DNA from: Candidatus Dojkabacteria bacterium
GTDB taxonomy: Bacteria > Patescibacteria > Dojkabacteria > SC72
DNA: 64,000 bases
Assembly: GCA_023229785.1 (NCBI GenBank)
Contig: JALNYV010000001.1
Span: 682,001-746,000, forward strand
Direction: 5' to 3'
Below the pieces are notes generated by a model. The model did not search any database. It was not told the DNA's origin and worked only from the letters and a program-made list of their open reading frames with translations. This document shows positions 2,570-56,134 of the stretch, one piece after another. Position 1 is the first letter of the stretch. Every line of letters begins with the position of its first letter. A program made the position numbers and the translations under genes.

Positions 2570-3070
2570 ATGAGAATTCTAGGAATTGATCCAGGCGTTG
2601 CAACTACAGGGTGGGCGATTGTTGATTTTGATAAAGAGATAAAAGTGGTTGATTTTGGTGTAATAACAACATCAAAAGAGAATACCCAACAGATAAGACT
2701 TTCAGAAATATATAAAGATTTGAGTGAGATTATCAATAAGTTTAAGCCAACTTTAGCTGGAATAGAGCTGCTTATCTTTAATAATAATGCGAAAACAGCA
2801 ATGAATGTTGGTGAAGCAAGAGGAGTAGTACTTTTGTTGCTTTCACAAATGAGTATTGAAACATTTCAGTTTACCCCTCCACAAATTAAAAGGTCTATTG
2901 CAGGTAGTGGTAGGGCGGATAAAAGACAAGTGCAGGAGAATGTTAAAAGAATGTGTAATCTATCAACACTTCCTAAACCCGATGATGCTGCAGATGCTAT
3001 AGCAATTGCTATATGCTGTAATGATTGTTACAAAATTAGTAGAATGAGTAATAATATAAACAAGAAATAA
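2570..3070 (+). CDS. ruvC: Holliday junction resolvase RuvC
   Basis: 166 aa, the normal RuvC length. RuvC is the endonuclease that cuts four-way DNA junctions within the RuvABC complex. Visible motifs are RILGIDPGVATTGWAI (first catalytic Asp), LAGIELLIF (catalytic Glu), and PDDAADAIAIAI at the C terminus (last catalytic Asps). It lies 33 nt after yebC and 1 nt before ruvA. A TATACA hexamer about 7 nt before the ATG may give it an extra promoter. The last 10 or so residues (NNINKK) are unconserved. Confidence 0.96.
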   Translation: MRILGIDPGVATTGWAIVDFDKEIKVVDFGVITTSKENTQQIRLSEIYKDLSEIINKFKPTLAGIELLIFNNNAKTAMNVGEARGVVLLLLSQMSIETFQFTPPQIKRSIAGSGRADKRQVQENVKRMCNLSTLPKPDDAADAIAIAICCNDCYKISRMSNNINKK

Positions 3071-3071
3071 T

Positions 3072-3665
3072 ATGATTAGTATTGTAAGTGGAAAAGTTGC
3101 AAAAGTTTCTGGAAGCGAGAAGTATTCTTTTGTTGACGTTTTAACCAGCCTTGGAATTGGATATAGGATATTTGTTAGCAAAAGAAGCTCGTTTAATGAG
3201 GGTGCAAACGTTGTTCTATACACAAGTTTCCAAGTTCGAGAGGACAATCAATCTCTTTATGGATTTCCTGATATGGAAGAGAGAGACTTCTTTGAACTAC
3301 TCATTACCGTCTCAGGAATAGGGCCTAAGATTGGTTTAGCGGTACTTTCAATGTATAGTCCAAGCGAGATTGTAGGATTCATTCTCTCTGGAGATGCAAC
3401 TAACCTATCTAAGGTTTCTGGTTTGGGAAAGAAGGGGGCGGGAAAGATTGTATTAGAGCTTGAAAACAGAATAAGTGGATTGGACATTAAGATATCTGAT
3501 ACAAAGGTCGCAAACAAACTCATAATTAGGGAGTTAAAAGAGGCTTTACAATCCTTAGGTTTTAAAGGTGAAGCTCTTAAAAGCTACTTAGAAAAAGGAG
3601 AAAAGTTATCAAAAGATGTTACAGAACTGGATCAATTACTTAAGTTAGTGTTAAAACACGATTGA
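3072..3665 (+). CDS. ruvA: Holliday junction DNA helicase subunit RuvA
   Basis: 197 aa. RuvA forms tetramers that bind the four-way junction and load RuvB. The OB-fold domain is at the N terminus (MISIVSGKVAKVSG). The helix-hairpin-helix motifs follow: LLITVSGIGPKIGLAVLS and LSKVSGLGKKGAGKIVLEL. A short domain III (IRELKEALQSLGFKGEAL) binds RuvB. Its TGA stop overlaps the TTG start of ruvB (TTGA at 3662-3665), suggesting translational coupling. Confidence 0.96.
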   Translation: MISIVSGKVAKVSGSEKYSFVDVLTSLGIGYRIFVSKRSSFNEGANVVLYTSFQVREDNQSLYGFPDMEERDFFELLITVSGIGPKIGLAVLSMYSPSEIVGFILSGDATNLSKVSGLGKKGAGKIVLELENRISGLDIKISDTKVANKLIIRELKEALQSLGFKGEALKSYLEKGEKLSKDVTELDQLLKLVLKHD

Positions 3666-4696
3666 TAGAATCAAGCTTAGAAGAGAAAAAGGGGAAGAGA
3701 AGGGTGAAAAAAGCTCCGCTTGAGAGTGTCACTGATACATTCGTTGAGCAAAAGATTAGGCCTAACAAATTCTCAGATATTATTGGTAGGGAAAATGAGA
3801 AAAACACTATATTAACAATGATAAGTGGGGCAAAGGGTAGGGGAGAAGTAATTGATCATATCCTTTTTTACGGCCCTCCTGGACTTGGGAAAACAACCTT
3901 TGCAATATCAATTGCTAATGAGATAGGAACAAACATTAAAATAACAAGTGGACCTGCAATAGAGAGAGCAGGAGATTTAGCTGCGGTGCTAACCAATTTA
4001 GCTCCAGGAGATATTCTTTTCATTGATGAAATACATAGGCTTCCAAAGGTTGTCGAAGAAGTATTATATCCTGCGATGGAAGATAGGGTTATTGATATTG
4101 TAATGGGAAAAGGCCCTTCTGCTAAAACAGTTAGGCTTCAACTTGAACCATTCACTTTAGTTGGGGCAACAACACAAATTGGTAAAATTGGTTCCCCAAT
4201 GAGAGATAGATTTGGCCTAATACAGAGGTTGGACTACTTCAAAGAAGATGACCTGTTAAATATACTTAAAAGAGCGGCAAAACTTTGGTCAATAAAGTAT
4301 GAAAAAGGTGCGTTAGAGGAGATTGCAAAGAGGTCAAGAGGAACAGCAAGAGTTGCCCTTAGACTTCTTCGAAGGGTGAGAGATTTTGCGGAGAATAAAT
4401 CAATTGATTTAAAATGCTCAACAAAATCTCTTGATCAACTGGGAATTGATGAGCAAGGTTTAGAACAGATAGATAGGAAAATAGTCAGCATTATCTATGC
4501 AGATTTCAATGGAGGACCTGTTGGGCTATCGACACTTGCTGCTACAATAAGTGAGGATGTGGATACACTTAGTGAGGTGTACGAGCCATATTTAATGAAA
4601 TGTGGTTTAATAAAAAGAACATTTCGTGGTAGAGTTTTGACAGAAAATGGAATTAGAAAAGCAATTGAAATACTAGGTTTAACATCAATAATATAG
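3662..4696 (+). CDS. ruvB: Holliday junction branch migration ATPase RuvB
   Basis: 344 aa, usual length. RuvB is the hexameric AAA+ motor of branch migration. Motifs: RPNKFSDIIGRENEK, Walker A YGPPGLGKTTFA, Walker B ILFIDEIHRL, sensor 1 VGATTQIG, arginine finger region PMRDRFGLIQRL, and a C-terminal winged helix with GPVGLSTLAATISED. The start is TTG at 3662, overlapping the ruvA stop; no ATG fits better because the conserved region begins about 30 residues in. A charged N-terminal extension (KKGKRRVKK) is unconserved. Confidence 0.97.
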   Translation: MIESSLEEKKGKRRVKKAPLESVTDTFVEQKIRPNKFSDIIGRENEKNTILTMISGAKGRGEVIDHILFYGPPGLGKTTFAISIANEIGTNIKITSGPAIERAGDLAAVLTNLAPGDILFIDEIHRLPKVVEEVLYPAMEDRVIDIVMGKGPSAKTVRLQLEPFTLVGATTQIGKIGSPMRDRFGLIQRLDYFKEDDLLNILKRAAKLWSIKYEKGALEEIAKRSRGTARVALRLLRRVRDFAENKSIDLKCSTKSLDQLGIDEQGLEQIDRKIVSIIYADFNGGPVGLSTLAATISEDVDTLSEVYEPYLMKCGLIKRTFRGRVLTENGIRKAIEILGLTSII

Positions 4697-4698
4697 TT

Positions 4699-5502
4699 AT
4701 GGTTAAAACAGATAATATCGATGAGTTTAAAAAGGGTAGAATGGTTGCCCTTGCTGTTGTTATTAGTATTCTGATTCTTGCATTAAAGCTTCTGCAGGCT
4801 GAAGAGACTGCTGCACTTCCATTTGTATATCTAAGGGCAGCTATAGCCGCTGTAGTGACCTATGTAGGACTTCTTTGGGCATTTCAACTTCAGGTAGCAC
4901 CAAGAACATTAACTTATGTATTAACACAAGCCGCTCTTTTGGTTTTTAATCAAACACTGTTTATTGAACTGTTTATTTTTAGGAGGGTAGGGAGGATTTA
5001 TGAAGCTCTACTGCTTCTTTTGGTCCTTGGGGTCATTACGGTAATGACATATATCTCTTTTGCAACTGCAAATATATTTAATGTAGCTTATTTTAAAAGG
5101 ATTCCTTTAATTGCAGTAGGGAAGACAATGTCTTTTCTTCTGACATTAATCTCAATTTACTTTATTTCGTTTTCAGTCTTAGAAAGCGGGTTTTTCCCTC
5201 TGTTTACAGTATTAATTCTTGCAGTATCATATCTCCTTCTCATAATTTTCCATCTAAGGCACTTGGAAATACGCAGGGATATCTTGTGGAAGGTAGTTTT
5301 TCTAACGCTGGGAATATTGATGATAAGTATTGGACTACTAATAGTTATTGGCGCAAACTCTGCTATTATGGCCTTTACCCCAGTGGTTCTCTTTTACTGT
5401 TTGGTCGGATTACAGACAAATGAAAAAATATCAAAAGCTCAGTTAATTGAGTATTTCTTCTTTACAATTATTGCTTTAGGTATCAATTTTATTGGCAGGT
5501 AG
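4699..5502 (+). CDS. Multi-pass membrane protein, unknown function
   Basis: 267 aa with about seven or eight hydrophobic segments, starting near residue 16 (VALAVVISILILALKLL) and continuing to the end (IIALGINFIGR). Only the first 14 residues and a short loop (RHLEIRRD) are clearly hydrophilic. It begins 2 nt after the ruvB stop, so it is probably co-transcribed with the ruv genes. No catalytic motif or known family is recognised. Confidence 0.75.
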   Translation: MVKTDNIDEFKKGRMVALAVVISILILALKLLQAEETAALPFVYLRAAIAAVVTYVGLLWAFQLQVAPRTLTYVLTQAALLVFNQTLFIELFIFRRVGRIYEALLLLLVLGVITVMTYISFATANIFNVAYFKRIPLIAVGKTMSFLLTLISIYFISFSVLESGFFPLFTVLILAVSYLLLIIFHLRHLEIRRDILWKVVFLTLGILMISIGLLIVIGANSAIMAFTPVVLFYCLVGLQTNEKISKAQLIEYFFFTIIALGINFIGR

Positions 5503-5929
5503 TTAGCAGAGGAGGGGGGAGAGTGAAACCTTACCTTGTCCCATAGTGGACAGAAGCTTATAGTAAGTTTGTGGATAACATTATCTACTCCTAGCACCAT
5601 ATATCATAAATAACTGTTATTTTAATAAATAATTCAGATTAGTTTCAGTATAGATTTTCATATATCCATAGTGGAGAAGAGGATACTTCCCACTGCTTGA
5701 CATATGCCTTAAAATCTACGATAATATATCGAGTATAATCGTCCTTATATGCGGTTGACACTAAGTCTACTTATTACTACACTATAATTATGATAAATCT
5801 ATATATTCCAAAAGTTGAATTATTTATATTTATTTCCTCCCTTTCTTCTTTCTCTGCTTTGTTTTATTATTATTTTATGGGAATATTTTATAACTTACGA
5901 CACTTTAATTTTTACCTCCCCCTACTCTG
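5503..5929. other. AT-rich intergenic region, 427 bp
   Basis: No ORF of note. It holds one DnaA-box-like TGTGGATAA (5570-5578), a direct repeat CCATAGTGGA (5541-5550 and 5666-5675), a sigma70-like promoter (5755-5783) and a long pyrimidine-rich stretch just before the recombinase gene. One box and no dnaA/dnaN nearby do not make an origin. Confidence 0.5.
5755..5783 (+). promoter_or_regulatory. Sigma70-like promoter upstream of the tyrosine recombinase
   Basis: TTGACA (5755-5760) is followed after exactly 17 nt by TACACT (5778-5783); TATAAT overlaps at 5783-5788. Transcription would start near 5790, leaving a leader of about 140 nt before the ATG at 5930, unlike the leaderless genes around. 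Confidence 0.5.
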
Positions 5930-7210
5930 ATGAAAGATATTATTAAGCTGCCCCAACAAGATAAATACCTACTTGGTCTCCAGAATGATAACTATAGTAT
6001 GCTCACAGTATTTAACTATGCGCGTGACCTCTGCATTTTTGCAGTTTTCCTTGATGCAAATAATATTAAATTTAAGGATTTGAGCAAAGATCACATCACC
6101 TTATACAAGGGATATCTTCGAAATGGAGATCATTTGAAAGATTTAGACAAAATAAGGGGTGAAAGTATGAAAAAGATAGATACAGCGCAGATAAATGCCA
6201 CAACGGGCTACAAGGGGTCTAAAACAAATGACAAGGTGGTTAGTACTGGTACAACACCTGGAAAAGACAGTCTAAATACGGGAAAGTTCCTTTCTAACGT
6301 GTATAAGAAGGTGTATGGAAGTTTAGGAGTTTTGAGCAAACCAAGTAACTCAAAATCACGAGCAAATTCTGGTTTGGATGCCCGAAGTGTTAATCGAATG
6401 TTATCTGCACTTAGAAGCTATTTAAAATATAGAATTGAATTTGATTTAGATATTCCAATTGCACCTGACGCGATAAAACTAATTAAGGCTGAGAAAAAGA
6501 AATCCCAGGTTGCGGAACTTTCTGAGCTTGTAAAACTAATAGAATGCCCAATTGAATTTGAGACCAAGAAAGATGTCGGAATTCGAAATAGAACAATGCT
6601 AGAGCTGCTTTTTTCGACTGGAATGAGAATTTCTGAGCTTGTTAATCTGAATCTTGATCAAATAAACCTAGAGGGTAAATTATTCATTCTAGGAAAGGGT
6701 AAAAAGCAAAGATTTGTGTATTTAACGCCAAGGGCTTTGGGTTGGCTTGATAAATATTTAGAGGTTAGATTTAAACATGCATTTGTAGAAGACCGTGAAA
6801 CGTCTAATGCAAATAGAACGTCTGATAATATGGAATTGAAATTTGATAAGTATAAGTATATTGAAATGCTGGAACAGTATAGAAAGAGTGGATATATTAC
6901 AAAGTTCAGTTCCCCTGCTCTCTTTATCCCTTTTAATGGTAGAAGAAGCGGAAAAGAAAATACAAGGATATCCACTAACTATTTTCAAGAAAGGATTGCT
7001 ATATATAGGAAAAGAATTGGGATATTAGTACCTACCTCTGCACACAGTTTAAGACATGGTTTTGCAACATATTTGGCTGAAAATGGAGCAAATCCCGCAG
7101 CAATACAGATACTTTTGGGTCATGAAAGCTTAAACACGACTACTAGGTATGTACATGCATCAGATAAATACGCACAAGACACTGTGAAGGATAAACACCC
7201 GTTAAAATAG
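5930..7210 (+). CDS. XerC/XerD-type tyrosine recombinase with an internal insertion
   Basis: 426 aa, about 120 longer than XerC/XerD. The catalytic set is complete: R233 (STGMRISELVNL), K256 (LGKGKKQRFVYL), H372 and R375 (HSLRHGFATYL), H398 (LLGHESL) and nucleophile Y407 (TTRYVHAS). The N-terminal SAM-like DNA-binding domain is split by a polar, low-complexity insertion at about residues 66-145, and a second insertion lies in the catalytic domain around 280-325. It would cut and rejoin DNA at paired sites, for example in dimer resolution. No dif-like site was recognised. It is the only tyrosine recombinase seen here, so a Xer role is plausible but not shown. Confidence 0.9.
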   Translation: MKDIIKLPQQDKYLLGLQNDNYSMLTVFNYARDLCIFAVFLDANNIKFKDLSKDHITLYKGYLRNGDHLKDLDKIRGESMKKIDTAQINATTGYKGSKTNDKVVSTGTTPGKDSLNTGKFLSNVYKKVYGSLGVLSKPSNSKSRANSGLDARSVNRMLSALRSYLKYRIEFDLDIPIAPDAIKLIKAEKKKSQVAELSELVKLIECPIEFETKKDVGIRNRTMLELLFSTGMRISELVNLNLDQINLEGKLFILGKGKKQRFVYLTPRALGWLDKYLEVRFKHAFVEDRETSNANRTSDNMELKFDKYKYIEMLEQYRKSGYITKFSSPALFIPFNGRRSGKENTRISTNYFQERIAIYRKRIGILVPTSAHSLRHGFATYLAENGANPAAIQILLGHESLNTTTRYVHASDKYAQDTVKDKHPLK

Positions 7211-7213
7211 TTT

Positions 7214-7639
7214 CTATTTATTCTCTTGTATATCTTTTACCGTTTGCGTGAACTCATCGGTCTTCATTGCGGCTTGAACCTTATTCACAGCATCAGGGTC
7301 TCCAGCTTGATATTTGTTATATAACTCCTTTACCTCTTTACCTTTTTCAAATAAGCCTTCCAATATCTTTACAACAATTAGTGCTCTTTTCTCATCTGCT
7401 TGGTCTCCATATGTTAATTTTGCTATTTCATCCACAATAGCACTCTTTCCTTCAACTGTAGCTTCGGATTCTAATTTTGTTTTTAATTCATTAAGTTTTT
7501 CTTCTGATAAAACATCAATAGCATCAGAAATAATGTCAGTTGTAATATCCATAGCACTTGCGTCAAGCATCTGGTCAATTTGATCTTGCGTATACCCAAA
7601 ATCAATCATTTTCTGTATTAATTCTTTTAATTTGTCCAT
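7214..7639 (-). CDS. Small helical protein, unknown function
   Basis: 141 aa, acidic, predicted almost wholly helical (MDKLKELIQKMIDFGYTQDQ at the start). No signal peptide or membrane segment. It is the last gene of a minus-strand set with the 635-aa protein (30-nt gap) and the 115-aa protein, and converges with the recombinase 3 nt away. No family recognised. Confidence 0.65.
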   Translation of the reverse strand: MDKLKELIQKMIDFGYTQDQIDQMLDASAMDITTDIISDAIDVLSEEKLNELKTKLESEATVEGKSAIVDEIAKLTYGDQADEKRALIVVKILEGLFEKGKEVKELYNKYQAGDPDAVNKVQAAMKTDEFTQTVKDIQENK

Positions 7640-7669
7640 TTTATATTTGGCAGTAAATTTAAATTATTT

Positions 7670-9577
7670 CTAATGTACAACACCTGTTTTGAAATCATTT
7701 ATTAATTGAACAACCTCAGGAACTCTACTTAAATCTCCACCTTGATTTGATGTCAAAAGTGGATTGTTCCATCCCATTCCATTCCTTACTGCACCATCAA
7801 TTCCTCTCCTCATGAACTCTCCATCAACTCTTGCAGGGTCTAAACCTTGTTGCTGTGCAAGCCTCATGATTATGGAATCTGTAGAGTCTCCAGGCCTAAT
7901 GTCAACATTCCATCCTGAAGTTCCACCAGGACCTTTTGGTATTCCAGTTCCTCCAGAGTTACTTGTCAAACCACCTTTTCCAACTTTCCCACCGGCATTT
8001 GTTACTGCACTATGGGCATGTATTAATCCATGTAAAGCGTTACCTAAACCAAATCCTGCACCAAGTCCTATTAATGCTGGTGCTCCATAAATTGCTGCAG
8101 TTACCAATGGTTTCAACCATTTTTTCTTCTTTTCTAGTTTAGCTTTCTTTTCTGCTTGTGTTGCTACATGTGATTCTAATAATGTTGTCAATGTTGGACT
8201 ATTTTGAATACCTTCGGCTTGTGCATCTCTTTGAATCCTTGCAATTTCTGTGTCAATATCTGCCATTTCTTGATCTAGTTTGCTAAGGTATTTTTCGCCT
8301 TTTTTACCTGCCAAATTAAGACCTATTGATCCACCAGCTGTCCCAACACCAATTGCTATTGCTGCTGCCACTCCGACAGGGGGAACAAGCAGTCCAACTC
8401 CAAGACCTATTGCTCCTCCAACCAATCCACAAATTAGCTTTATTTTATTTCTCTTTTTTGTTTTTTCCATAGCCTCTTCTTTTGCTTTTTGCTCCGCCTC
8501 CATAGTTTGCCTTGCTCTCATCTCTTGTTCTAATTTTAATGTAAGTTCTTCAACACTTCTTTTAAGTGCTGAGATATCCTCATCTCTTTTTTTATTTGCT
8601 GCCAATTCTTCTTCTGATAGTCTGTTTTCGGAAATAACAAGGATTCCTGTTTGATTGGCAATCTCAAGTAATATTTGTAGCTCAATTTCTAGTCTAGTTT
8701 TTTGTTCGGCAGTTACATTCTTCCCAGTTCTCAACTCATTTTGAATTCTTGTAATCTCTATATTGAGTGCTACAGAAGAATCTTTTTCTGAGCTTGATAC
8801 TGTGAGTAATATAGCAATCTCATTTCTAATCTTTGTTTTCTCTTCTTCTGGCGTTGAATTATCATGTAATTTTTCTCTTAATATTTCTATTTTAGTTTTT
8901 ATTGCTATAGAAACCTTGTCTGTATTTTTATCGTTTAATTCAACCTTTATTGTTCCTTCTGCTTCACGCAATGCTTGGCTTGTGACTGAGATTTTCAGAC
9001 CTATCTCTAATATGAGGGATTCGTTTTTGTCCTCGACCGCCCTCTTAAATTCTACCCTTAATTTTTCTAATTCTATCGTAAGTGTTTCCTTGGTTGTTTT
9101 TTCCACTTCTTTTGGAGGAGTATTAACTTCTCCTTCATCTTTTTTATCTGGCGATACTTGAGTCCCGTTAATTGTAATCTCAATGCTAGTTTTTTGTATT
9201 TGAGAAATAATACTTACTAACTTAGCAAATTCATCTGTATTTAATGTTCCTGAGGCTTGTTTGGCCTCTAAATCTTTAAGCTCATTTTCTAATATTGCCA
9301 ACTCTTGCTTTTGACCTTCAAAATTGTCAATTGCAATATTTGCAATATTCTTCCAGTCATGTTCCCTCTTTGTCACTTTTCCAAGCTCTTCTGAATGTTT
9401 TTTATTTAATGAGTCTCTTAATTTATTCATATCCTGCTCATTCTGTTTTGCTATCCCAGCGATAGCATCCTGTCCAATAAATACATCTCTGGATTTTGAA
9501 TTAATATCTGTAGGCATTGATGCAGAAAATCCAGAATTCAATTTATCATTGTAATCCATCTTTTCCTTCCCCGTCAT
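7670..9577 (-). CDS. Large coiled-coil protein with two glycine-rich hydrophobic segments
   Basis: 635 aa, no recognised family. Residues 70-330 hold several helical repeat units of similar pattern: for example KTKIEILREKL...TPEEEKTKIRNEIAILL and NIEITRIQNELR...TAEQKTRLEIELQILL. Residues 330-375 form a charged coiled coil. About 380-425 (LICGLVGGAIGLGVGLLVPP and on) and 495-525 are glycine-rich hydrophobic stretches that could insert in a membrane. The C-terminal 110 residues are Gly/Pro-rich, then a compact helical end. The frame is open for 31 codons upstream of this ATG up to a TAA that ends the 115-aa gene in the same frame. A later ATG (9559) has a better Shine-Dalgarno (AAGGA), so the true start is uncertain. 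Confidence 0.65.
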   Translation of the reverse strand: MTGKEKMDYNDKLNSGFSASMPTDINSKSRDVFIGQDAIAGIAKQNEQDMNKLRDSLNKKHSEELGKVTKREHDWKNIANIAIDNFEGQKQELAILENELKDLEAKQASGTLNTDEFAKLVSIISQIQKTSIEITINGTQVSPDKKDEGEVNTPPKEVEKTTKETLTIELEKLRVEFKRAVEDKNESLILEIGLKISVTSQALREAEGTIKVELNDKNTDKVSIAIKTKIEILREKLHDNSTPEEEKTKIRNEIAILLTVSSSEKDSSVALNIEITRIQNELRTGKNVTAEQKTRLEIELQILLEIANQTGILVISENRLSEEELAANKKRDEDISALKRSVEELTLKLEQEMRARQTMEAEQKAKEEAMEKTKKRNKIKLICGLVGGAIGLGVGLLVPPVGVAAAIAIGVGTAGGSIGLNLAGKKGEKYLSKLDQEMADIDTEIARIQRDAQAEGIQNSPTLTTLLESHVATQAEKKAKLEKKKKWLKPLVTAAIYGAPALIGLGAGFGLGNALHGLIHAHSAVTNAGGKVGKGGLTSNSGGTGIPKGPGGTSGWNVDIRPGDSTDSIIMRLAQQQGLDPARVDGEFMRRGIDGAVRNGMGWNNPLLTSNQGGDLSRVPEVVQLINDFKTGVVH

Positions 9578-40046: not shown

Positions 40047-42677
40047 ATGTTTGTTAATTCAATTAAAAAAACAAGTTTTATTCTTTTTGGAATCTTTCTT
40101 GTGTTGTTTATTTATTTTAATGTAAATTATACTTATGCGGCAGATAGATGTAATGTAAACGGACAACAATACGCATGTTCAACGTATGCAGAAAATGACC
40201 AAGCTTGTGGAAACCCTCAAAATGGTGGTTGCCCTAACGCGCATTATACTACTTTTTGTGGCTGGGAATGTAGTGACGATTGTTCGGTAGGATACGTCAC
40301 TGGAAATTGTTATTTTCAGAGTGGAACTAATGAGCACTGTTGGTGTGTTGGTGGTGATGTTATGGTTAGAAATGGGTGTCGCTATTGGGGAAGGGAGTGT
40401 ACTCTAATATCAAGAAATCCTTTGACTTATACTTGCACAGCATACTATTGGCATTATTATGACTGTGAAGTTTGGGATGATTGTGCTAGTGAAGACTGTG
40501 ATTCTGGATATTGGGAAGCATGTGTAGAGGAACATTGGGATGCCTATGGTTTGTGTGAAGGAACTGTAGTTCCTCCATCATGCTCCTGCTCTCCTTCCTC
40601 CTGTTCCCCTTCTTGTCCTCCAGGTCAGACTGATCATGATACTGGATATGGTGTAGCTGGTTCTGATTCTTGTTCATATAACACTGGAAGTTGTAATGGT
40701 GATGGGAGTTGTGAGACTGATACAGATTCAACCACCTGTTGGTACACTGGCGGTCCTCCTGTTCCTTGTACAAACTGTACAACAGTTACTTCAATGGATG
40801 GAACAGCAACTCCTTTAGGTTGTACAATAGCAAGTGGAAATATCGCAGGAAAAGAAACAAATAACCTACTCCAAATATATACTTCATTTTCTGATACAAA
40901 TGGAATAGCTGATATAAAAGCAGTACAATCATGGCTTTCTAAAACATCAGCTCCTGTTATTTCTAAAATATATGATACTGGTGCTCCAAAGCTTTTGTCT
41001 AATGATTCCTTTGGAATATTAGTTAAAGAAGTAGGAGGTGTTTGGACTGATTTGTATGTCCCTGGAGTAGACGATAATTCAAGTACAATTGTTTGGAGAA
41101 AAGCTGGAACAGTTGGGACAGGTCAAAGGGCATGGATGAGAGGGACTGGAGACCAATATATAATTGGAATAAGTGATGTGTATGTAACAGAAGTTGGTTC
41201 AAATGTTGAACTTTCATATAAGATACAGTTTTTTAATGAAACATCAGGGCTTGAATTGTACGAAAAAGCAATAGATGGAACATATAATCTATTTATTGCA
41301 GCAAATGATACAAATGGATTTTTGCCTTCAGGTGGAACAACCATTGCTGTTCCAACTGCATGGACTGATTCAACAAAAGATGTAATTATAGACTTAACTG
41401 ACCCAGTTGCTGATACACTTACATATTCTGTTCTAACTGCAACAACATTTTCTCTCTCTTGGAGGTTTACTGATTCAAATTCTTCAATTATTAGAAGTAT
41501 AGGAGATGCATCAATTGCAACTGCAGGAAAGGTAAATGGCACAATTGACGATACAACAAGTGGTGTTACAAACTATGTCCTTGGAAGCGGTGCAACAGGC
41601 GTTAACCTATATTCTGGTTCCCCTCACCTTTGGAGTGTAAATAACCTGGGAAATAGGGCCGATACTATAGATTTAAAGAGTAATGAGGGTGGAAGTCTAA
41701 ACTTTGAAGCATATGGCTTTGATGCCTCGTGTAACAGCACACATGCCACATTAAACGTGGGTTTAGGTGAAACTTGGGTTGCAACTAAGGGTGGGCTTGT
41801 AAACACAGGAAGTGGCTCTACAATAATCATTCCTAATTTAACAGGGCATACTACTTTTTCAGCAGATTCCTATTGGAATTCACCGTTTGGATTTCTAAAA
41901 GATGAGGCAGATTTCTCGAGCATTCTACTTTCAGGTAGTACATCAACCCTTTCTACCCTACTACATTCTTCAGTAACCCATTCAGTTTCCATTACTCAAA
42001 GTAGTGATGGAAATAACCGAACAAATTATTGGTATGGAGAGCTTTTAAAGAGGGTAAAGGAGAAAATAGCACTATCCCCTGCTACATTTATTGAAATGTC
42101 TTCAAGTGGAAACAAAACTGTAAGTGGTAATGCATCAGATATTGTTGGTAGTGGAAAACAGTGTGCAAGCAATAAAAACTGTGTATTAGAAATAAGTGGG
42201 AATTTGAGTGTACTAAGTGGGTTCAATTGTGATGTTAGAGTAGCATTCTTAGTTGGTGGTACAACAACAATTAATCCTGATATTACAGCTTCTGCTCCAA
42301 ACTATGGTTGTTTGTTTATCTCTAAAGGAGATGTAACAATTGCTGCTGGAACATATAAATCATCAAGCAGTGCATATCCAAAATATGACATTATTGAAGG
42401 ATATATTTTAACTGATGGAATAATAAATATACCGCTAACTGATTCTTCTCAAGAAATTAGGGATGGATTGAAAGTAAACGGTAGTTTAGTTGCATTTGGA
42501 ACAGATGCCTCAACAGGTAGGTCTATTAATATGTTGAGATCCCTAAAACTTCTATTTAATAACTCATATCCAGCTTTAGCAGTACATTTTGATAATAGAT
42601 ATGTTGAATTTGCACCAATATTCTTTGGTGGTCAAAAAGAAGGGTTTGAAAGAGAAGTTGGGTTTAAAGCTTTTTAG
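40047..42677 (+). CDS. Large secreted Cys-rich surface protein of the pilus region
   Basis: 876 aa. Signal peptide (SFILFGIFLVLFIYFNVNYTYA) followed by a region of about 220 residues with dozens of Cys, rich in Trp, Tyr, Gly and Ser, including a CSCSPSSCSPSCPPG stretch. The middle part is Thr/Ser/Gly-rich and beta-like, with phrases such as DLTDPVADTLTYSV that resemble Ig-like repeats. The C-terminal 200 residues (CLFISKGDVTIAAGTYKSSS, REVGFKAF at the end) look like a separate beta domain. Possible adhesin or pilus-tip protein; the function is inferred from position only. Confidence 0.7.
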   Translation: MFVNSIKKTSFILFGIFLVLFIYFNVNYTYAADRCNVNGQQYACSTYAENDQACGNPQNGGCPNAHYTTFCGWECSDDCSVGYVTGNCYFQSGTNEHCWCVGGDVMVRNGCRYWGRECTLISRNPLTYTCTAYYWHYYDCEVWDDCASEDCDSGYWEACVEEHWDAYGLCEGTVVPPSCSCSPSSCSPSCPPGQTDHDTGYGVAGSDSCSYNTGSCNGDGSCETDTDSTTCWYTGGPPVPCTNCTTVTSMDGTATPLGCTIASGNIAGKETNNLLQIYTSFSDTNGIADIKAVQSWLSKTSAPVISKIYDTGAPKLLSNDSFGILVKEVGGVWTDLYVPGVDDNSSTIVWRKAGTVGTGQRAWMRGTGDQYIIGISDVYVTEVGSNVELSYKIQFFNETSGLELYEKAIDGTYNLFIAANDTNGFLPSGGTTIAVPTAWTDSTKDVIIDLTDPVADTLTYSVLTATTFSLSWRFTDSNSSIIRSIGDASIATAGKVNGTIDDTTSGVTNYVLGSGATGVNLYSGSPHLWSVNNLGNRADTIDLKSNEGGSLNFEAYGFDASCNSTHATLNVGLGETWVATKGGLVNTGSGSTIIIPNLTGHTTFSADSYWNSPFGFLKDEADFSSILLSGSTSTLSTLLHSSVTHSVSITQSSDGNNRTNYWYGELLKRVKEKIALSPATFIEMSSSGNKTVSGNASDIVGSGKQCASNKNCVLEISGNLSVLSGFNCDVRVAFLVGGTTTINPDITASAPNYGCLFISKGDVTIAAGTYKSSSSAYPKYDIIEGYILTDGIINIPLTDSSQEIRDGLKVNGSLVAFGTDASTGRSINMLRSLKLLFNNSYPALAVHFDNRYVEFAPIFFGGQKEGFEREVGFKAF

Positions 42678-42703
42678 CCTAAACATAAAAGATTTCCATG
42701 TGG

Positions 42704-42709
42704 TATAAT
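42704..42709 (+). promoter_or_regulatory. Extended -10 for the S41-like gene and its short leader ORF
   Basis: TGGTATAAT; the hexamer ends 9 nt before an ATG at 42719 that opens a 7-codon ORF (42719-42742). That ORF ends in TGA within ATGA at the start of the peptidase gene (42739). Confidence 0.5.
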
Positions 42710-42738
42710 TTTCTCGTTATGATGAGTTTATTATTAAC

Positions 42739-43881
42739 ATGATTTCTATTAATGAGCAACAATTGAATGAAGATTTAGCTATATTTGTTCTACAATTAAT
42801 TAAATATCATCCTAATCCATACAAATATATTTCAAAAGATTCATTTGATGCTGAAATTTCAAAGATTAGAAAAGGTAATGAAAAAGAATCAATTAAAGAT
42901 TATGGAATCTCTTTAATGAAATTACTTAGTAAACTAAAAGATGGGCATACTGAATTATGTCCTTCTGATGATGTTTTAGGTACTCTAAACTATCCCATAA
43001 AACTCAGATATTTTATTGACGGATATTATTTAACGAATGTTAGTGAGAAATATGTAAAACTATTAGGAGGTAAGCTAACAAAGATAGACAACAGGAATAT
43101 TGAAGAGATTGAGAGGATTTTGAAAGATTTGATTTCAATTGAGAATAAAACCTCCATTAAGTATTACTTTCCAAAATACTTATACGAACCAGTGATTCTG
43201 AACTATTTTGGAATTACTCAAGAAGATTCAACTACATTCACTTTTGAGAAAGATGCAAGGGAAGAATCTGTCGTAATTACACCAATTAGTTATAATGAGC
43301 AACTTGTCGGAATAACTGATGGACTGAAGAATATTGAGGAAACATTAGCTGAAAAGAGTCTATATTGGGGAAAGAAAATAGGAGAAATCAATTCATACTA
43401 TTTTCAATACAATTCATGTGAGATTCTTAAGGACTATCCAATTTCAAAAGTAATTGAAGAAATAAAGGAAAGTAAGTGTATCAGAGTAATTGTAGATTTA
43501 CGAAATAATACTGGAGGAGATTCAGATGTTTTGGAACCTTTAATTGATTTCTTAAATTTAGAATGTGAGAAAATTAAAACTGTTGTTTTAACAGGATCTA
43601 AAACATATTCTTCAGCAATTATAAACCTAGTATTTCTTTCAAGAATAAAAAATAGTATTTCAATCGGAGAAATCCCTCATGCTAATCCAACACATTTTGG
43701 AACAACAACAAAGTTTGAACTCCCAAATTCAAAATTATCAATTCAAGTTTCAACTGATTTCTTAAGATATAGAGGTTATAAATTAGGAGAAGTCTTCACT
43801 CCCACTTATGAAGTTAACACGACAATAGGAGATTATGAAAAAGGTGTTGATACTCAAATGAAATTTTTAAAAAATTTGTAA
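42739..43881 (+). CDS. S41-like peptidase, no signal peptide
   Basis: 380 aa. S41/tricorn-type motifs: SKLKDGHTELC (conserved D-G-H-T), VIVDLRNNTGGDSDVLEPL (the LRxNxGG motif) and VLTGSKTYSSAIINL (the nucleophile Ser region). No signal peptide or PDZ domain is obvious, so it is probably cytoplasmic. The C-terminal processing peptidases keep a Lys; here a tricorn-like triad with the His is more likely. It converges with the RiPP-like peptide gene; its base composition is native. A role in peptide processing is an open possibility. Confidence 0.78.
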   Translation: MISINEQQLNEDLAIFVLQLIKYHPNPYKYISKDSFDAEISKIRKGNEKESIKDYGISLMKLLSKLKDGHTELCPSDDVLGTLNYPIKLRYFIDGYYLTNVSEKYVKLLGGKLTKIDNRNIEEIERILKDLISIENKTSIKYYFPKYLYEPVILNYFGITQEDSTTFTFEKDAREESVVITPISYNEQLVGITDGLKNIEETLAEKSLYWGKKIGEINSYYFQYNSCEILKDYPISKVIEEIKESKCIRVIVDLRNNTGGDSDVLEPLIDFLNLECEKIKTVVLTGSKTYSSAIINLVFLSRIKNSISIGEIPHANPTHFGTTTKFELPNSKLSIQVSTDFLRYRGYKLGEVFTPTYEVNTTIGDYEKGVDTQMKFLKNL

Positions 43882-43899
43882 TCCATCTCAGAATTACTG

Positions 43900-43945
43900 C
43901 CCGAGATCGTTGTTTTTTTGTTGTTGCCAACGATCTCGGGTTTTT
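43900..43945 (+). terminator. Strong terminator between the S41-like gene and the peptide gene
   Basis: CCCGAGATCGTTG (43900-43912) and CAACGATCTCGGG (43928-43940) form a perfect 13-bp stem around a T-rich loop, followed by TTTTT on the plus strand. It ends the plus transcript; the same stem stands after the minus-strand peptide gene, without a U-run on that side. Confidence 0.88.
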
Positions 43946-43972
43946 GTGATCACAAAAGCGAATCAGGCTCTT

Positions 43973-44071
43973 TTACTTGCTTCCGCGGCATGAGCACTGT
44001 TTATCGGTTTTGCAACCATGGGCGTTGGTCGTGACAATCACGGTCTTGACCACACCAAAGCAGGTCTTCAT
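43973..44071 (-). CDS. 32-aa Cys-containing peptide, candidate RiPP precursor
   Basis: Too short for ordinary gene calling. ATG at 44071 follows AAAGGAGG with a 5-nt spacer, the best Shine-Dalgarno in the window. The peptide starts MKTCFGVVKTVIVTTNAHG and ends CKTDKQCSCRGSK; Cys at 4, 20, 26 and 28; net positive. It lies 60 nt downstream of the radical SAM/SPASM gene on the same strand and ends ahead of a 13-bp stem. Bases 43981-44040 contain 31 G/C of 60, unlike native genes. The layout (rSAM/SPASM enzyme plus tiny Cys peptide) fits a ribosomally made, post-translationally modified peptide. A precursor after the enzyme gene is less usual. No family recognised. Confidence 0.7.
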   Translation of the reverse strand: MKTCFGVVKTVIVTTNAHGCKTDKQCSCRGSK

Positions 44072-44131
44072 TTGTGCCTCCTTTCTTTAGAATAGTTAAT
44101 TATAGGTTTGTTACAACCTGAAGTCAAAATT

Positions 44132-45430
44132 TCATTGTCCTAAAGCAGCTTCTTTTAATGTGTTCCAGAGCACACCTTGCATAATTTCACAGTAGTTTTG
44201 GGGCTGTCTATTTCCGCTAATTAAGCGAGTGTGATGGCATCCCCCAGCGCAGGTGAATTTTGCAAAGCAATTTGTACACTCTGAAAAATTGTATAGATTG
44301 AGAAGCTTTAGATAAGCTAGTCTTACTTCATTAACAGATACTCCTGCTTGGGTAACTTCGCCGATAAAGAAAATATCAGCAAGTGAATCGTCACTTCGAG
44401 TTACTCTCGTACAGCAGGAAATCTGACCATCAGGCATTATTGCAAACGATTCTCCGTCGGCATTGCAATATCTTGCACTTGCATTATCAAGGTAATCCGA
44501 AGGCATTGAGAATATTACACCGAGCTCTTTTGCTCTTCTCTTTGTCTCTATATAGCACTTGATAAACCGAGGAGCATCTATATCGGGAACACCGTTTTCG
44601 CCTCTGCCTGTTAGAGAGAAAGGTGCAACGCTTATTTCTTTACATCCGATTGAGGCACAAAGCTCCAGGAAGTCGAGCATATCATCTTGATTGATTCCTG
44701 TGATTGTTGACCTCATTGCAAAGTAGACGTTATGTCTTACTAGTGCTTTTGCGCCGTTTATAGCTTCAGTGAACGAACCCGTTCCATCAGCTTTTGGCCG
44801 CAATTGATTTTGCACTTTTTCCATACCGTCTATTGAAAGTACTACGGAGAAGTTATGTTTAGCTAGAAACATTGCTTTTTCGTCATCTATTAATGTCCCG
44901 TTTGTTACGAGTGTGAATTTAATATTCCACCCATTGGGCAAGATGCTCAAAGCATAGTTCACAGCCTTTACCATAACATCCCATCTTACGGTCGTTTCAC
45001 CAGTTCCGTGAAAACTTAGTTCTACTTCCTTGTCCTTTCTTTTTCTTGCATATTCGTACATCTGTTGAATTGAGATTTCTATTATCTGCCAAGGTAAATC
45101 GGTAAAAACGTTACACGTGAGAGCATAGCAGTATATACAGCGAAGATTGCATGCTGATGTAACTGACATTGTTAACTCACGAGGTGCGTAACTTCCGATT
45201 TCAGATTTCCTTGGTAATTCGACTTCTTGAAAGAATCCTCTTTCCGCAAGAAAGGCATGAAACTCATGATCAGGGGGCATTCCTGCCTTGATAAACTGAT
45301 CGATAAGCTCAAGTCCTTCTAGATTTACGGAAAAGAATTTTCCAAGAAGAGGTGAATAAATAACGCCCAATTCTGCGTCACGAACAAGAAACATGTTTGG
45401 ATATAACATCTGCCAACTTATGGTATTCAT
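44132..45430 (-). CDS. Radical SAM/SPASM peptide-modifying enzyme
   Basis: 432 aa. Radical SAM cluster C94-x3-C98-x2-C101 (SACNLRCIYCYA) binds the SAM-reactive 4Fe-4S centre; VELSFHGTGETTVRWD and LSIDGMEK follow the family plan. The C terminus has a full SPASM set: C-x12-G-x4-C (YCNADGESFAIMPDGQISCC), then C385-x2-C388-x5-C394-x3-C398 (CTNCFAKFTCAGGC) and C414, able to hold two auxiliary clusters. Residues 1-75 (GVIYSPLLGKFFSVNLEG...FLAERGFF) resemble a PqqD-like peptide-binding domain. Such enzymes crosslink or epimerise peptides. Shine-Dalgarno AAAAGGAG, 7 nt before ATG. Base composition is higher in GC (27 of 60 in 44641-44700) than in neighbours, suggesting transfer. Confidence 0.9.
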   Translation of the reverse strand: MNTISWQMLYPNMFLVRDAELGVIYSPLLGKFFSVNLEGLELIDQFIKAGMPPDHEFHAFLAERGFFQEVELPRKSEIGSYAPRELTMSVTSACNLRCIYCYALTCNVFTDLPWQIIEISIQQMYEYARKRKDKEVELSFHGTGETTVRWDVMVKAVNYALSILPNGWNIKFTLVTNGTLIDDEKAMFLAKHNFSVVLSIDGMEKVQNQLRPKADGTGSFTEAINGAKALVRHNVYFAMRSTITGINQDDMLDFLELCASIGCKEISVAPFSLTGRGENGVPDIDAPRFIKCYIETKRRAKELGVIFSMPSDYLDNASARYCNADGESFAIMPDGQISCCTRVTRSDDSLADIFFIGEVTQAGVSVNEVRLAYLKLLNLYNFSECTNCFAKFTCAGGCHHTRLISGNRQPQNYCEIMQGVLWNTLKEAALGQ

Positions 45431-45485
45431 TTCTCAGTCTCCTTTTCTGAGGGATAGATTTTGAAAGAGCCATTATGACACAATC

Positions 45486-45491
45486 ATTATA
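45486..45491 (-). promoter_or_regulatory. -10 element for the radical SAM/peptide operon
   Basis: TATAAT on minus, about 55 nt before the ATG at 45430. It leaves a leader of roughly 48 nt with a Shine-Dalgarno, unlike the leaderless native genes. Confidence 0.5.
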
Positions 45492-45536
45492 TTACTTTGT
45501 AATTAAGTATACTATAGGGTGTTGTTTTAAGTATGG

Positions 45537-45542
45537 TATACT
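45537..45542 (+). promoter_or_regulatory. Extended -10 for the 102-aa gene
   Basis: TGGTATACT, with the hexamer ending 6 nt before the ATG at 45549. Confidence 0.55.
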
Positions 45543-45548
45543 CTAAAT

Positions 45549-45857
45549 ATGAAAGATATATATCTTACAAAAGATATCGCTGTAAAAGTAAATATATATA
45601 TAGCAGATGGTTTTTTAGCAGAAGATGTAGCTGTTATTGAACTTGGAACTAGAGAAGGAGATAAAAGAAAACGGAAATATAGTGAAGAGGAATTTAAAAA
45701 AGAAATAAAGGATGGAAATGTCGTAGTTGCAATGATAAGAGAAGATCCGATTGGATATGCTGTTGTCCAAGATGGGAAAATTATGGATTATTATATTGAG
45801 TGGATATTTGAAGATTCAGGATTAAAAGAGATTTTGTTAAAAGAAGCTATAAAATAG
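45549..45857 (+). CDS. Small protein, possibly a shortened GNAT-like domain
   Basis: 102 aa. The segment NVVVAMIREDPIGYAVVQDGKIMDYYIEWIFEDSG resembles the central strands of GNAT acetyltransferases, but the acetyl-CoA loop (R/Q-x2-G-x-G/A) is absent. It may be a truncated or regulatory relative, or another fold. It is monocistronic, ahead of pilM by 73 nt. Confidence 0.5.
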   Translation: MKDIYLTKDIAVKVNIYIADGFLAEDVAVIELGTREGDKRKRKYSEEEFKKEIKDGNVVVAMIREDPIGYAVVQDGKIMDYYIEWIFEDSGLKEILLKEAIK

Positions 45858-45930
45858 TAAGTTTGACTTTCTACTCCTTAATGTTTAATATTTATTTATA
45901 TAATCTGCCTAATTTAATACATTTTAGTAT

Positions 45931-55544: not shown

Positions 55545-56123
55545 TTACTTTATTATTTTATCTATTAATCCGTATTCTAGTGCTTCTTTTGCAGTAAAGT
55601 ATTTGTCTCTATCTGCGTCTTTTTCAATCTCTTTTATTGCTTTCCCAGTAAATTTAGAAAGTAATCCAAAAAGGAGCTCTCTTTGTTTTAGTATCTCTGT
55701 TGCTTCTATCTTTATATCGCTTGCCTGTCCAGTTACTCCACCAAGAGGTTGGTGAATATGAATCTTACTATTTGGAAGAGATAATCTTTTTCCTTTTTTT
55801 CCTCCTGCCAAAAGCAGACTTCCCATTGATGCTGCAAGCCCTACTGCTATTGTGCTCACATCTGGTTTTATATAGTTCATTGTATCTAGAATTGCTAATC
55901 CATCGGAGATAACTCCTCCTGGAGTATTAATGAACATTTGGATATCGGCCTTTGGATCTTCCTTTTCTAAAAAAAGAAGTTGTGCAATTATTGTGTTTGC
56001 CATATGACTTTCTACCTCATCAGTAACAAAGATAATTCTATCTTTAAGTAGCCTTGAGTATATATCGTAGGCTCTCTCCCCATCTCTTTCTTTTTCAATT
56101 ACTGTTGGTATTAGTACTGACAT
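55545..56123 (-). CDS. clpP: ATP-dependent Clp protease proteolytic subunit
   Basis: 192 aa from ATG 56123 (a TTG at 56129 is not needed). Catalytic Ser in [14 protein letters not shown], His in [10 protein letters not shown], and Asp in the [16 protein letters not shown] helix; the loop RIIFVTDEV is at the start. Tetradecameric protease core fed by Clp ATPases. It follows tig by 18 nt but has its own TATAAT 5 nt before the ATG. Confidence 0.96.
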
Positions 56124-56128
56124 GCTCA

Positions 56129-56134
56129 ATTATA
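56129..56134 (-). promoter_or_regulatory. -10 element for clpP
   Basis: TATAAT on minus; it ends 5 nt before the clpP ATG at 56123, inside the tig-clpP spacer. Confidence 0.55.

What the first reader, a model, noticed from the sequence alone, without database searches (positions are those of the whole stretch)
43973..45491. Compact candidate RiPP system: radical SAM/SPASM enzyme plus 32-codon Cys peptide
Seen: a complete radical SAM (C94/C98/C101) and SPASM (C-x2-C-x5-C-x3-C) enzyme with a PqqD-like N terminus is followed 60 nt later on the same strand by a 32-codon gene with AAAGGAGG 5 nt before its ATG. The peptide has four Cys (4, 20, 26, 28). Both genes have higher GC and Shine-Dalgarno sites unlike their neighbours. 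Known: SPASM enzymes commonly install crosslinks in ribosomal peptides. Inference: the peptide is the substrate and the pair was acquired. No exporter or dedicated protease is seen; the S41-like peptidase next door is a possible partner. I recognise no known precursor family.
Basis: partly seen in the sequence, partly recalled or inferred. Interest (0 to 1): 0.85.

Follow-up and report, generated by a model that had tools for sequence, protein, structure and literature searches.

The report
Candidate peptide-crosslinking cassette in Dojkabacteria
A very small uncultured bacterium carries an inserted three-gene unit that looks built to make, chemically crosslink and trim one tiny sulfur-rich peptide, and the same unit recurs in related bacteria.

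Summary
In detail: a 432-aa radical SAM/SPASM enzyme and a 32-codon Cys peptide 60 nt behind it. In a class of 85 genomes the window peptide alone hits exactly the 5 that have an orthologous enzyme (60-70% identity) and no other up to E 0.1, each time 59-63 nt downstream. It is under purifying selection (pS 0.82, pN 0.22).

New here: (1) a sigma70-type promoter sequence in the gap, exact 17-nt spacing, in 6 of 6 loci. (2) A convergent S41 peptidase closes the unit in 6 of 6 loci, in at least three genomic surroundings. (3) Three close relatives show the empty site in the type IV pilus cluster before pilM. (4) Related enzymes have Cys-rich precursors with C-x2-D/E enriched; two tested score best against PapB, the Cys-Asp ranthipeptide maturase.

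Best reading: a ranthipeptide-like RiPP with a C20-D23 thioether, leader probably removed by S41. Bond type and S41 role are inferred; S41 relatives also occur without the pair. New variant of a known kind.

The parts
44132..45430 (-). radical SAM/SPASM maturase, 432 aa, predicted RRE-like N terminus (about residues 1-80), AdoMet-cluster Cys 94/98/101, further invariant Cys 322, 340, 385, 388, 394, 398, 414
43973..44071 (-). precursor peptide, 32 aa, leader with FG, core CKxDKQC[SA]Cx[GS]S
44099..44127 (-). sigma70-type promoter sequence before the precursor: TTGACT-17-TATAAT, 11 of 12 consensus; TTGNNN-17-T[AT]TAAT in 6 of 6 loci
44077..44084 (-). Shine-Dalgarno AAAGGAGG of the precursor; GAAAGGAG invariant in 6 of 6 loci
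43900..43940 (.). 13-bp hairpin between precursor and S41 gene; z -5.04 here, -4.35 to -5.34 over 6 of 6 loci; probable terminator between convergent genes
43942..43957 (.). palindrome TTTTGTGATCACAAAA, exact copy in the cassettes L180 and L184 (3 of 6 loci)
42739..43881 (+). convergent S41-family peptidase, 380 aa, no hydrophobic N terminus in the sequence; Ser291 and His70 invariant in 13 of 13 aligned, Glu311 in at least 90%
42678..45930 (.). region present here and absent between the same two genes in three close relatives (empty site); includes the 102-aa ORF 45549-45857, which is not part of the other cassettes

Best explanation
This is a compact, mobile RiPP cassette. The precursor is transcribed from its own promoter in the 60-nt gap (inferred from a conserved sequence). 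Its leader (FG..V.V....N) binds the RRE-like N-terminal domain of the maturase (inferred from fold). The radical SAM/SPASM enzyme then most likely installs a ranthionine thioether from Cys20 to the beta carbon of Asp23 (C-x2-D), possibly with further links from Cys26/Cys28 (inferred). The cytosolic S41 peptidase probably removes the leader after the small residue before Cys20, giving a product of about 13 residues, CKTDKQCSCRGSK here (inferred). Conservation of the trio in six loci, the promoter sequence, the empty site in relatives and purifying selection on the peptide are shown by sequence.
Against: The window enzyme is far below the curated cut-offs of PapB (128.5 of 340 bits) and SCIFF maturase (132.6 of 425). 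Only Cys20 has an acidic residue at +3; Cys26 and Cys28, equally invariant, have none. In the three mid-group peptides alone C-x2-[DE] is not significant (8 against 5.7, P 0.13). Two genomes (G422, G290) have the S41 gene (41-43%) without enzyme or peptide, and the cassettes L180 and L184 lie among genes that also flank S41 genes lacking the pair (L209, L214, L215), so S41 may be the older resident there. In the artificial fused model only leader residues V8-A17 are placed with some confidence (pLDDT 83; other peptide blocks 42-67), and the tool reports no contacts. No exporter in the cassette.
Confidence: 0.56

Rival explanations
1. Sactipeptide-like product: the enzyme links Cys20/26/28 to alpha carbons, not to the Asp side chain.
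For: Sactipeptide maturases (RumMC, SkfB) are among the matches. Three invariant Cys and an invariant Ser31 leave other acceptors open.
Against: D23 is invariant and C-x2-[DE] is enriched across related systems. The relatives L185 and L188 rank PapB first.
Confidence: 0.17
2. Cofactor or signal logic: the nearly invariant core is trimmed to a small redox cofactor or a conserved signal, as PQQ and mycofactocin arise from short peptides (recalled); crosslinking is only one step.
For: The 13-residue core varies little (pN 0.17 against pS 0.99), unlike the diversification expected of an antimicrobial (recalled). One peptidase and no exporter beside it.
Against: No Tyr or Glu in the core as in PQQ, no C-terminal Val-Tyr as in mycofactocin (recalled). 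No further gene is shared by the flanks of the different cassettes.
Confidence: 0.12
3. The S41 gene is only a neighbour: enzyme and peptide act alone, and S41 stayed beside them by linkage or was the older resident of the place they entered.
For: S41 occurs without the pair in G422 and G290, and more distant S41 relatives occur in 5 further genomes of 85. Genes flanking the cassettes L180 and L184 also flank such S41 loci: clpP 97% and the next ORF 68% identical between L180 and L214, an SDR gene 81% between L184 and L209. S41 diverges faster, 42-46% identity against 60-70% for the enzyme, and is lower in GC.
Against: 6 of 6 loci keep it convergent at 61-91 nt, also where the surroundings differ: pilus cluster in the window, a third setting in L001/L183. 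The window's close relatives G213, G248, G173 have neither pair nor S41. A distant S41 relative (about 25%) stands at the end of a same-strand row with another rSAM/SPASM enzyme and a Cys-rich peptide in G073.
Confidence: 0.33
4. The 32-codon ORF is not a gene, only a chance ORF beside the enzyme.
For: It is short, and NCBIfam and Pfam have no family for it.
Against: Conserved ORF, promoter sequence and SD in 6 of 6 loci, purifying selection, hits in the same 5 of 85 genomes as the enzyme.
Confidence: 0.02

Closest known systems
PapB/PapA (ranthipeptide maturase and precursor; NCBIfam NF047865)
   Same: SPASM maturase with a short precursor and a Cys-to-Asp spacing motif. The two tested enzymes of the wider family, L185 and L188, score best against PapB.
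   Different: Window enzyme 128.5 bits, cut-off 340. Core with one C-x2-D instead of six C-x3-D/E (PMC9413430, abstract and passages); precursor 32 aa.
CteB/CteA SCIFF maturase (TIGR03974; PDB 5WGG, 5WHY)
   Different: 132.6 bits against cut-off 425. Three conserved Cys in the precursor, not six in 45 residues as stated in a passage of PMC8692599.
Leader peptidases of RiPP pathways
   Same: A peptidase gene in a fixed position beside the precursor.
   Different: In the review PMC10885120 five S41 phrases (S41 peptidase, S41 family, family S41, S41 protease, peptidase S41) occur 0 times; the serine proteases in the passages seen include S8 and S9 (passages only). A search for S41 peptidase + RiPP + leader peptide gave 0 papers in the held library.
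Graspetides of CPR bacteria
   Same: RiPP clusters reported in CPR bacteria (PMC8939145, abstract and passages).
   Different: ATP-grasp chemistry; the enzyme here is a radical SAM protein.

Membership tests
RiPP biosynthetic pair (maturase plus precursor) | Conserved precursor ORF linked to the maturase across genomes | tested here: met
   5 of 5 orthologous loci besides the window; window peptide alone hits 5 of 85 genomes, the same as the orthologous enzyme
RiPP biosynthetic pair (maturase plus precursor) | Codon-level purifying selection on the precursor | tested here: met
   pS 0.82, pN 0.22 over 15 pairs of six sequences
RiPP biosynthetic pair (maturase plus precursor) | Leader-binding RRE domain in the maturase | tested here: inconclusive
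   Model residues 10-431 align with CteB chain residues 1-450, and the N terminus is four strands then two helices; binding not shown, fused model only moderate
SCIFF maturase (TIGR03974) | Score above the curated cut-off | tested here: not met
   132.6 of 425 bits
SCIFF peptide | Six Cys in about 45 residues | tested here: not met
   Three invariant Cys; 29-32 residues in all
PapB family ranthipeptide maturase (NF047865) | Score above the curated cut-off | tested here: not met
   128.5 of 340 bits; relative L185 179.8
PapA-type precursor | Repeated C-x3-D motifs | tested here: not met
   One C-x2-D in the core; +3 and not +4 enriched across the wider set
Ranthipeptide (chemical class) | Thioether from Cys to a non-alpha carbon | not testable with these tools
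   Needs MS/NMR; only the motif and enzyme kinship are known
Sactipeptide (chemical class) | Thioether from Cys to an alpha carbon | not testable with these tools
   Needs MS/NMR
Peptidase family S41 (PF03572) | Score above the gathering cut-off | tested here: met
   29.1 of 24 bits, over a 34-residue stretch
Peptidase family S41 (PF03572) | Catalytic Ser and His/Glu kept (residues recalled from tricorn-type S41) | tested here: met
   S291 and H70 invariant in 13 of 13, E311 at least 90%

The most novel reading that the evidence does not exclude
Dojkabacteria with genomes of about 0.6-0.9 Mb as held exchange a self-contained RiPP cassette: own-promoter precursor, PapB-like C-x2-D thioether maturase, S41-family leader peptidase. 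It would be a new ranthipeptide subfamily with a leader-peptidase family not found for RiPPs in the papers searched here, making a near-invariant 13-residue crosslinked peptide used in contact with host or neighbour cells or as a signal.
Probability: 0.3. Interest if true: 0.77.

Novelty: new variant of a known kind. Interest (0 to 1): 0.61.

Why it matters
Patescibacteria have tiny genomes and are thought to lack many biosynthetic pathways (recalled; two surveys whose passages I saw report no biosynthetic clusters in their Patescibacteria). A gene unit that is kept, selected and inserted at different places there to make one modified peptide points to a function worth its cost, perhaps in dealing with host cells. 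With three genes it is testable by co-expression. A C-x2-D maturase with its own S41 protease would add a new crosslinking enzyme and possibly a new kind of leader peptidase.

Tried and rejected
GC content as proof of transfer was rejected: enzyme and peptide are richer in GC than S41 in all six loci.

S41 as strictly dedicated partner was rejected: 12 of 85 class genomes have an S41 relative at E 1e-5; 7 at 41-46% identity, of which 5 sit beside the enzyme and 2 (G422, G290) do not and show no precursor nearby.

Four separate surroundings for the trio was my first count, (ORFs of 80 aa or more). One search, which added S41 loci without the pair, showed that L180 and L184 lie among genes that flank such loci (L209, L214, L215), with clpP as a landmark for L180; the two may be one neighbourhood. 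The count is now at least three: pilus cluster (window), L180/L184, L001/L183. L181 is too short to tell. The odds for the best explanation (0.58 to 0.56), the S41-neighbour rival (0.30 to 0.33) and the novel case (0.32 to 0.30) were changed for this reason.

The 102-aa ORF 45549-45857 as a cassette part was rejected: absent beside the other cassettes; relatives in 2 of 85 genomes (G100, G057), neither with an orthologous enzyme; G057 has a 37% enzyme on another contig.

Enzyme relatives were checked for Cys-rich small ORFs downstream. Searches gave 19 distinct places. The 5 places of 60-70% identity and the 4 of 35-38% all have one. Of the other 10, 4 have a clear one (L188, L189, L193, L195), 2 are doubtful (L192, L194), 3 have none by these scans (two places in L190, one in L191), and L187 could not be judged because the contig ends 20 nt past the stop. 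Among the 75 best-scoring of 186 loci given, 34 had some small Cys ORF near the enzyme, many of them probably chance frames. One search looked at loci without turning those on the minus strand, so its rows for them are void; one search replaced it. The viral-contig scan gave only distant relatives, at most 35% identity over part of the enzyme among the 80 kept.

The profile search (5 of 85 at E 8.5e-19 to 1.1e-20, next 0.03) is partly circular, since the five hits were members of the profile; with the window peptide alone is the independent test.

No repeat pair of 8-12 bases was found between the two ends of the inserted region, so the mode of insertion is unknown. The promoter scan found 5 sites against 5.2 expected at its lax threshold; the promoter claim rests on 6 of 6 loci with exact spacing, noting that the six loci are related sequences. 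A search of plasmids with the peptide gave nothing. Mapping PapB Arg372 onto the enzyme failed: no clear PapB sequence was at hand.

Motif statistics: one search used 12 peptides, leaving out three near-duplicates (L183, L182, L193) and L192 and L194; one search used 13, adding L192 and L194 and leaving out the L212 peptide. The peptides were collected after the motif had been seen in some of them, so the P values are descriptive.

Full report
What is there. The window holds a radical SAM/SPASM ORF (44132-45430, minus, 432 aa) and, 60 nt downstream, a 32-codon ORF (43973-44071, minus) with a strong Shine-Dalgarno site. The enzyme matches Pfam Radical_SAM (64.5 bits). None of the 25 NCBIfam families shown (of 73 matched) reaches its curated cut-off: the best are the SCIFF maturase TIGR03974 (132.6 of 425 bits) and PapB NF047865 (128.5 of 340). 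The peptide matches no family in NCBIfam or Pfam. No whole genome is held for the window.

Relatives of the enzyme. Among about 5.8 billion proteins, 83 were reported at E below 1e-3. Besides the window's own entry (P0001), 24 proteins have 41-70% identity over 63-100% of the query (P0002-P0024 and P0026). In a class of 85 genomes around L001, 7 have a match at E below 1e-25; in a phylum sample of 379, overlapping with it, 13. The class contains a genome titled Candidatus Dojkabacteria (G002, locus L002). The window's PilM protein has its 14 best relatives (59-84% identity), in a phylum sample of 286, all in genomes of that class. The window is therefore probably from a Dojkabacteria-like genome (inference).

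The peptide is a real, conserved gene. All five other loci with a 60-70% identical enzyme (L180, L181, L001, L183, L184) carry a related ORF 59-63 nt downstream. Counted from the shared FG they align without gaps over 28 residues; invariant are F, G, T, V, N and then C-K-x-D-K-Q-C-x-C and S. Pooled over 15 pairs, pS is 0.82 and pN 0.22; for the core alone 0.99 and 0.17; the pair L001/L183 differs by 8 synonymous changes and 1 non-synonymous. The window peptide alone, searched in six frames of 85 genomes, hits five (E 4.8e-10 to 1.5e-5), exactly those with the orthologous enzyme, and no other up to E 0.1. A profile of all six agrees, but its five hits were members of the profile. These genomes share ancestry, so the co-occurrence is not five independent events. 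The Cys at position 4 is found in the window alone of the six, so the Cys that matter are probably 20, 26 and 28.

A promoter sequence and a hairpin. In each of the six gaps TTGNNN, 17 bases, T(A/T)TAAT occurs 27-32 bases before the start codon; in the window it is TTGACT-17-TATAAT, 11 of 12 consensus positions. Shuffled gaps gave such a site in 0.02-0.18% of cases. Between precursor and S41 gene every locus has a strong hairpin (z -4.35 to -5.34 in 6 of 6). The palindrome TTTTGTGATCACAAAA is shared exactly by the window, L180 and L184. The precursor thus looks transcribed on its own, as expected for a substrate needed in excess (inference).

The third gene. The neighbouring S41-family peptidase (29.1 bits, cut-off 24) is present and convergent in all six loci, 42-46% identical to the window's, 61-91 nt from the precursor. 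Outside the trio, no flanking ORF of 80 aa or more is shared between the window, L180, L184 and the pair L001/L183, which share flanks with each other (L184 shows three flanking ORFs on one side only, L181 none). A wider comparison qualifies this: L180 shares clpP (97%) and the next ORF (68%) with L214 and other ORFs with L209 and L215, and L184 shares an SDR gene (81%) with L209 and an ORF (65%) with L215; these are loci with an S41 gene but no such pair. So L180 and L184 may lie in one old S41 neighbourhood, and the trio stands in at least three surroundings. Ser291 and His70 are invariant and Glu311 nearly so in 13 sequences, so the peptidase is probably active; that these are the catalytic residues is recalled. 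Against a strictly dedicated role, G422 and G290 have a 41-43% relative with no enzyme or precursor. For a role, the window and L001/L183 keep the trio together elsewhere, and a distant relative in G073 (L212, about 25%) stands at the end of a same-strand row of genes: a different rSAM/SPASM enzyme, a Cys-rich peptide ending in TCNPDCGPFGNCRPDCEPHD, an ORF with an HEFAH motif, a flippase/MatE-like transporter, then S41.

Insertion. In the three genomes with the most similar PilM (G213, G248, G173; 84, 77 and 75%) the type IV pilus cluster runs from the homologue of the gene at 40047-42677 straight to pilM with a gap of 86-104 bases. In the window S41, precursor, enzyme and a 102-aa ORF lie between these two genes. 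None of these three genomes has the enzyme, an S41 relative or the precursor at the limits used. The pilM-side flank of the window resembles the empty gap in all three. Acquisition by insertion is the simplest reading; loss in all three is less simple but not excluded.

The wider family. Enzymes of 35-38% identity (L002, L182, L185, L186) have, in 4 of 4 cases, a small Cys-rich ORF starting about 2-21 nt after the enzyme stop, with a leader resembling the window's: (L/M)FGxVV. Two of these genomes (G331, G424) carry both kinds of enzyme. Of 10 more distant places, 4 have clear Cys-rich ORFs, 2 doubtful ones, 3 none and 1 could not be judged. Across 13 peptides, an acidic residue stands at +3 after 42 of 78 Cys (expected 20.7; 0 of 4000 shuffles reach it); without the most repetitive peptide it is 25 of 60 against 14.4. 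Offsets +1, +2, +4 and +5 are not enriched. In the three mid-group peptides alone it is not significant (P 0.13) (with 12 peptides is similar). Two of these enzymes, L185 and L188, were scored against NCBIfam and match PapB best (179.8 and 127 bits, cut-off 340). PapB forms Cys-Asp thioethers in C-x3-D motifs and tolerates C-Xn-D with n from 0 to 6 (PMC9413430, abstract and passages).

Mechanism, step by step. Shown by sequence: linked, selected precursor; maturase with all cluster Cys; promoter-like site; conserved S41; empty site in relatives. Inferred: RRE reads the leader; the enzyme links Cys20 to Asp23; S41 removes the leader, perhaps at the Gly/Ala before Cys20 present in all six; the product is about 13 residues. 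Unknown: the fate of Cys26 and Cys28, export, and biological role. The near-invariance of the core speaks for a constant partner or task, such as a signal or a host-directed function, more than for an arms race (inference).

Known and new. RiPP clusters of the graspetide type were reported in CPR bacteria (PMC8939145; abstract and passages). Searches of the held open-access library for Patescibacteria + RiPP + radical SAM, candidate phyla radiation + RiPP + peptide + radical SAM, Dojkabacteria + biosynthetic gene cluster, and ranthipeptide + Patescibacteria gave 4, 2, 1 and 6 papers, nine different ones. I saw passages of all nine, none read whole; none of the passages described this system. 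Two say that their Patescibacteria held no BGCs (PMC11613949; PMC12282132), one counts 9 Patescibacteria BGCs (PMC8692599), and one reports 16 RiPP-related BGCs in CPR, mainly encoding YcaO proteins (PMC12153355). Subscription papers are not in the library. The unit is best called a new variant of a known kind: a ranthipeptide-like RiPP system outside the curated families tested, with C-x2-D in place of C-x3-D and an S41 peptidase as likely partner.

Noticed in passing
L212 (G073:C1), 2731-7842: Same-strand row of genes: rSAM/SPASM enzyme, Cys-rich C-x2-D peptide (about 4020-4229), HEFAH-motif protein, flippase/MatE-like transporter, S41 peptidase; looks like a fuller RiPP operon with protease and exporter in the same class.
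   Followed up: partly
L188 4708-4998 (+) and L193 7730-8020 (-): Long precursor-like proteins (96 aa) with Cys every three or four residues (CxxDCxxD; 18 Cys in L188), directly after an enzyme of 28-29% identity.
   Followed up: partly
L182 and L185 (G331, G424): Genomes with two different maturase-precursor systems, one of the window's type and one with an LFGxVV leader and a longer acidic Cys-rich core.
   Followed up: partly
L180, L184, L209, L214, L215; window 55545-56129 (clpP): S41 genes of the class recur near clpP and a few other shared genes with or without the enzyme-precursor pair; possible hotspot. The window's own clpP lies about 10 kb from its cassette.
   Followed up: partly
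window 45549-45857: 102-aa ORF inside the inserted region; relatives (37-40%) in 2 of 85 class genomes, not beside such a cassette; function unknown.
   Followed up: partly
window 40047-42677: 876-aa Cys-rich, probably surface protein beside the pilus genes, no Pfam match at E 0.001, homologue beside pilM in G213, G248, G173.
   Followed up: no
window 43942-43957: Palindrome TTTTGTGATCACAAAA kept exactly in three of six cassettes; could be part of the terminator or an operator.
   Followed up: partly
L190 (G350:C7:88000-104000): Five tblastn matches to the enzyme (E 6e-36 to 5e-7) within 16 kb of one Patescibacteria genome, none with a small Cys ORF within 350 nt downstream.
   Followed up: partly
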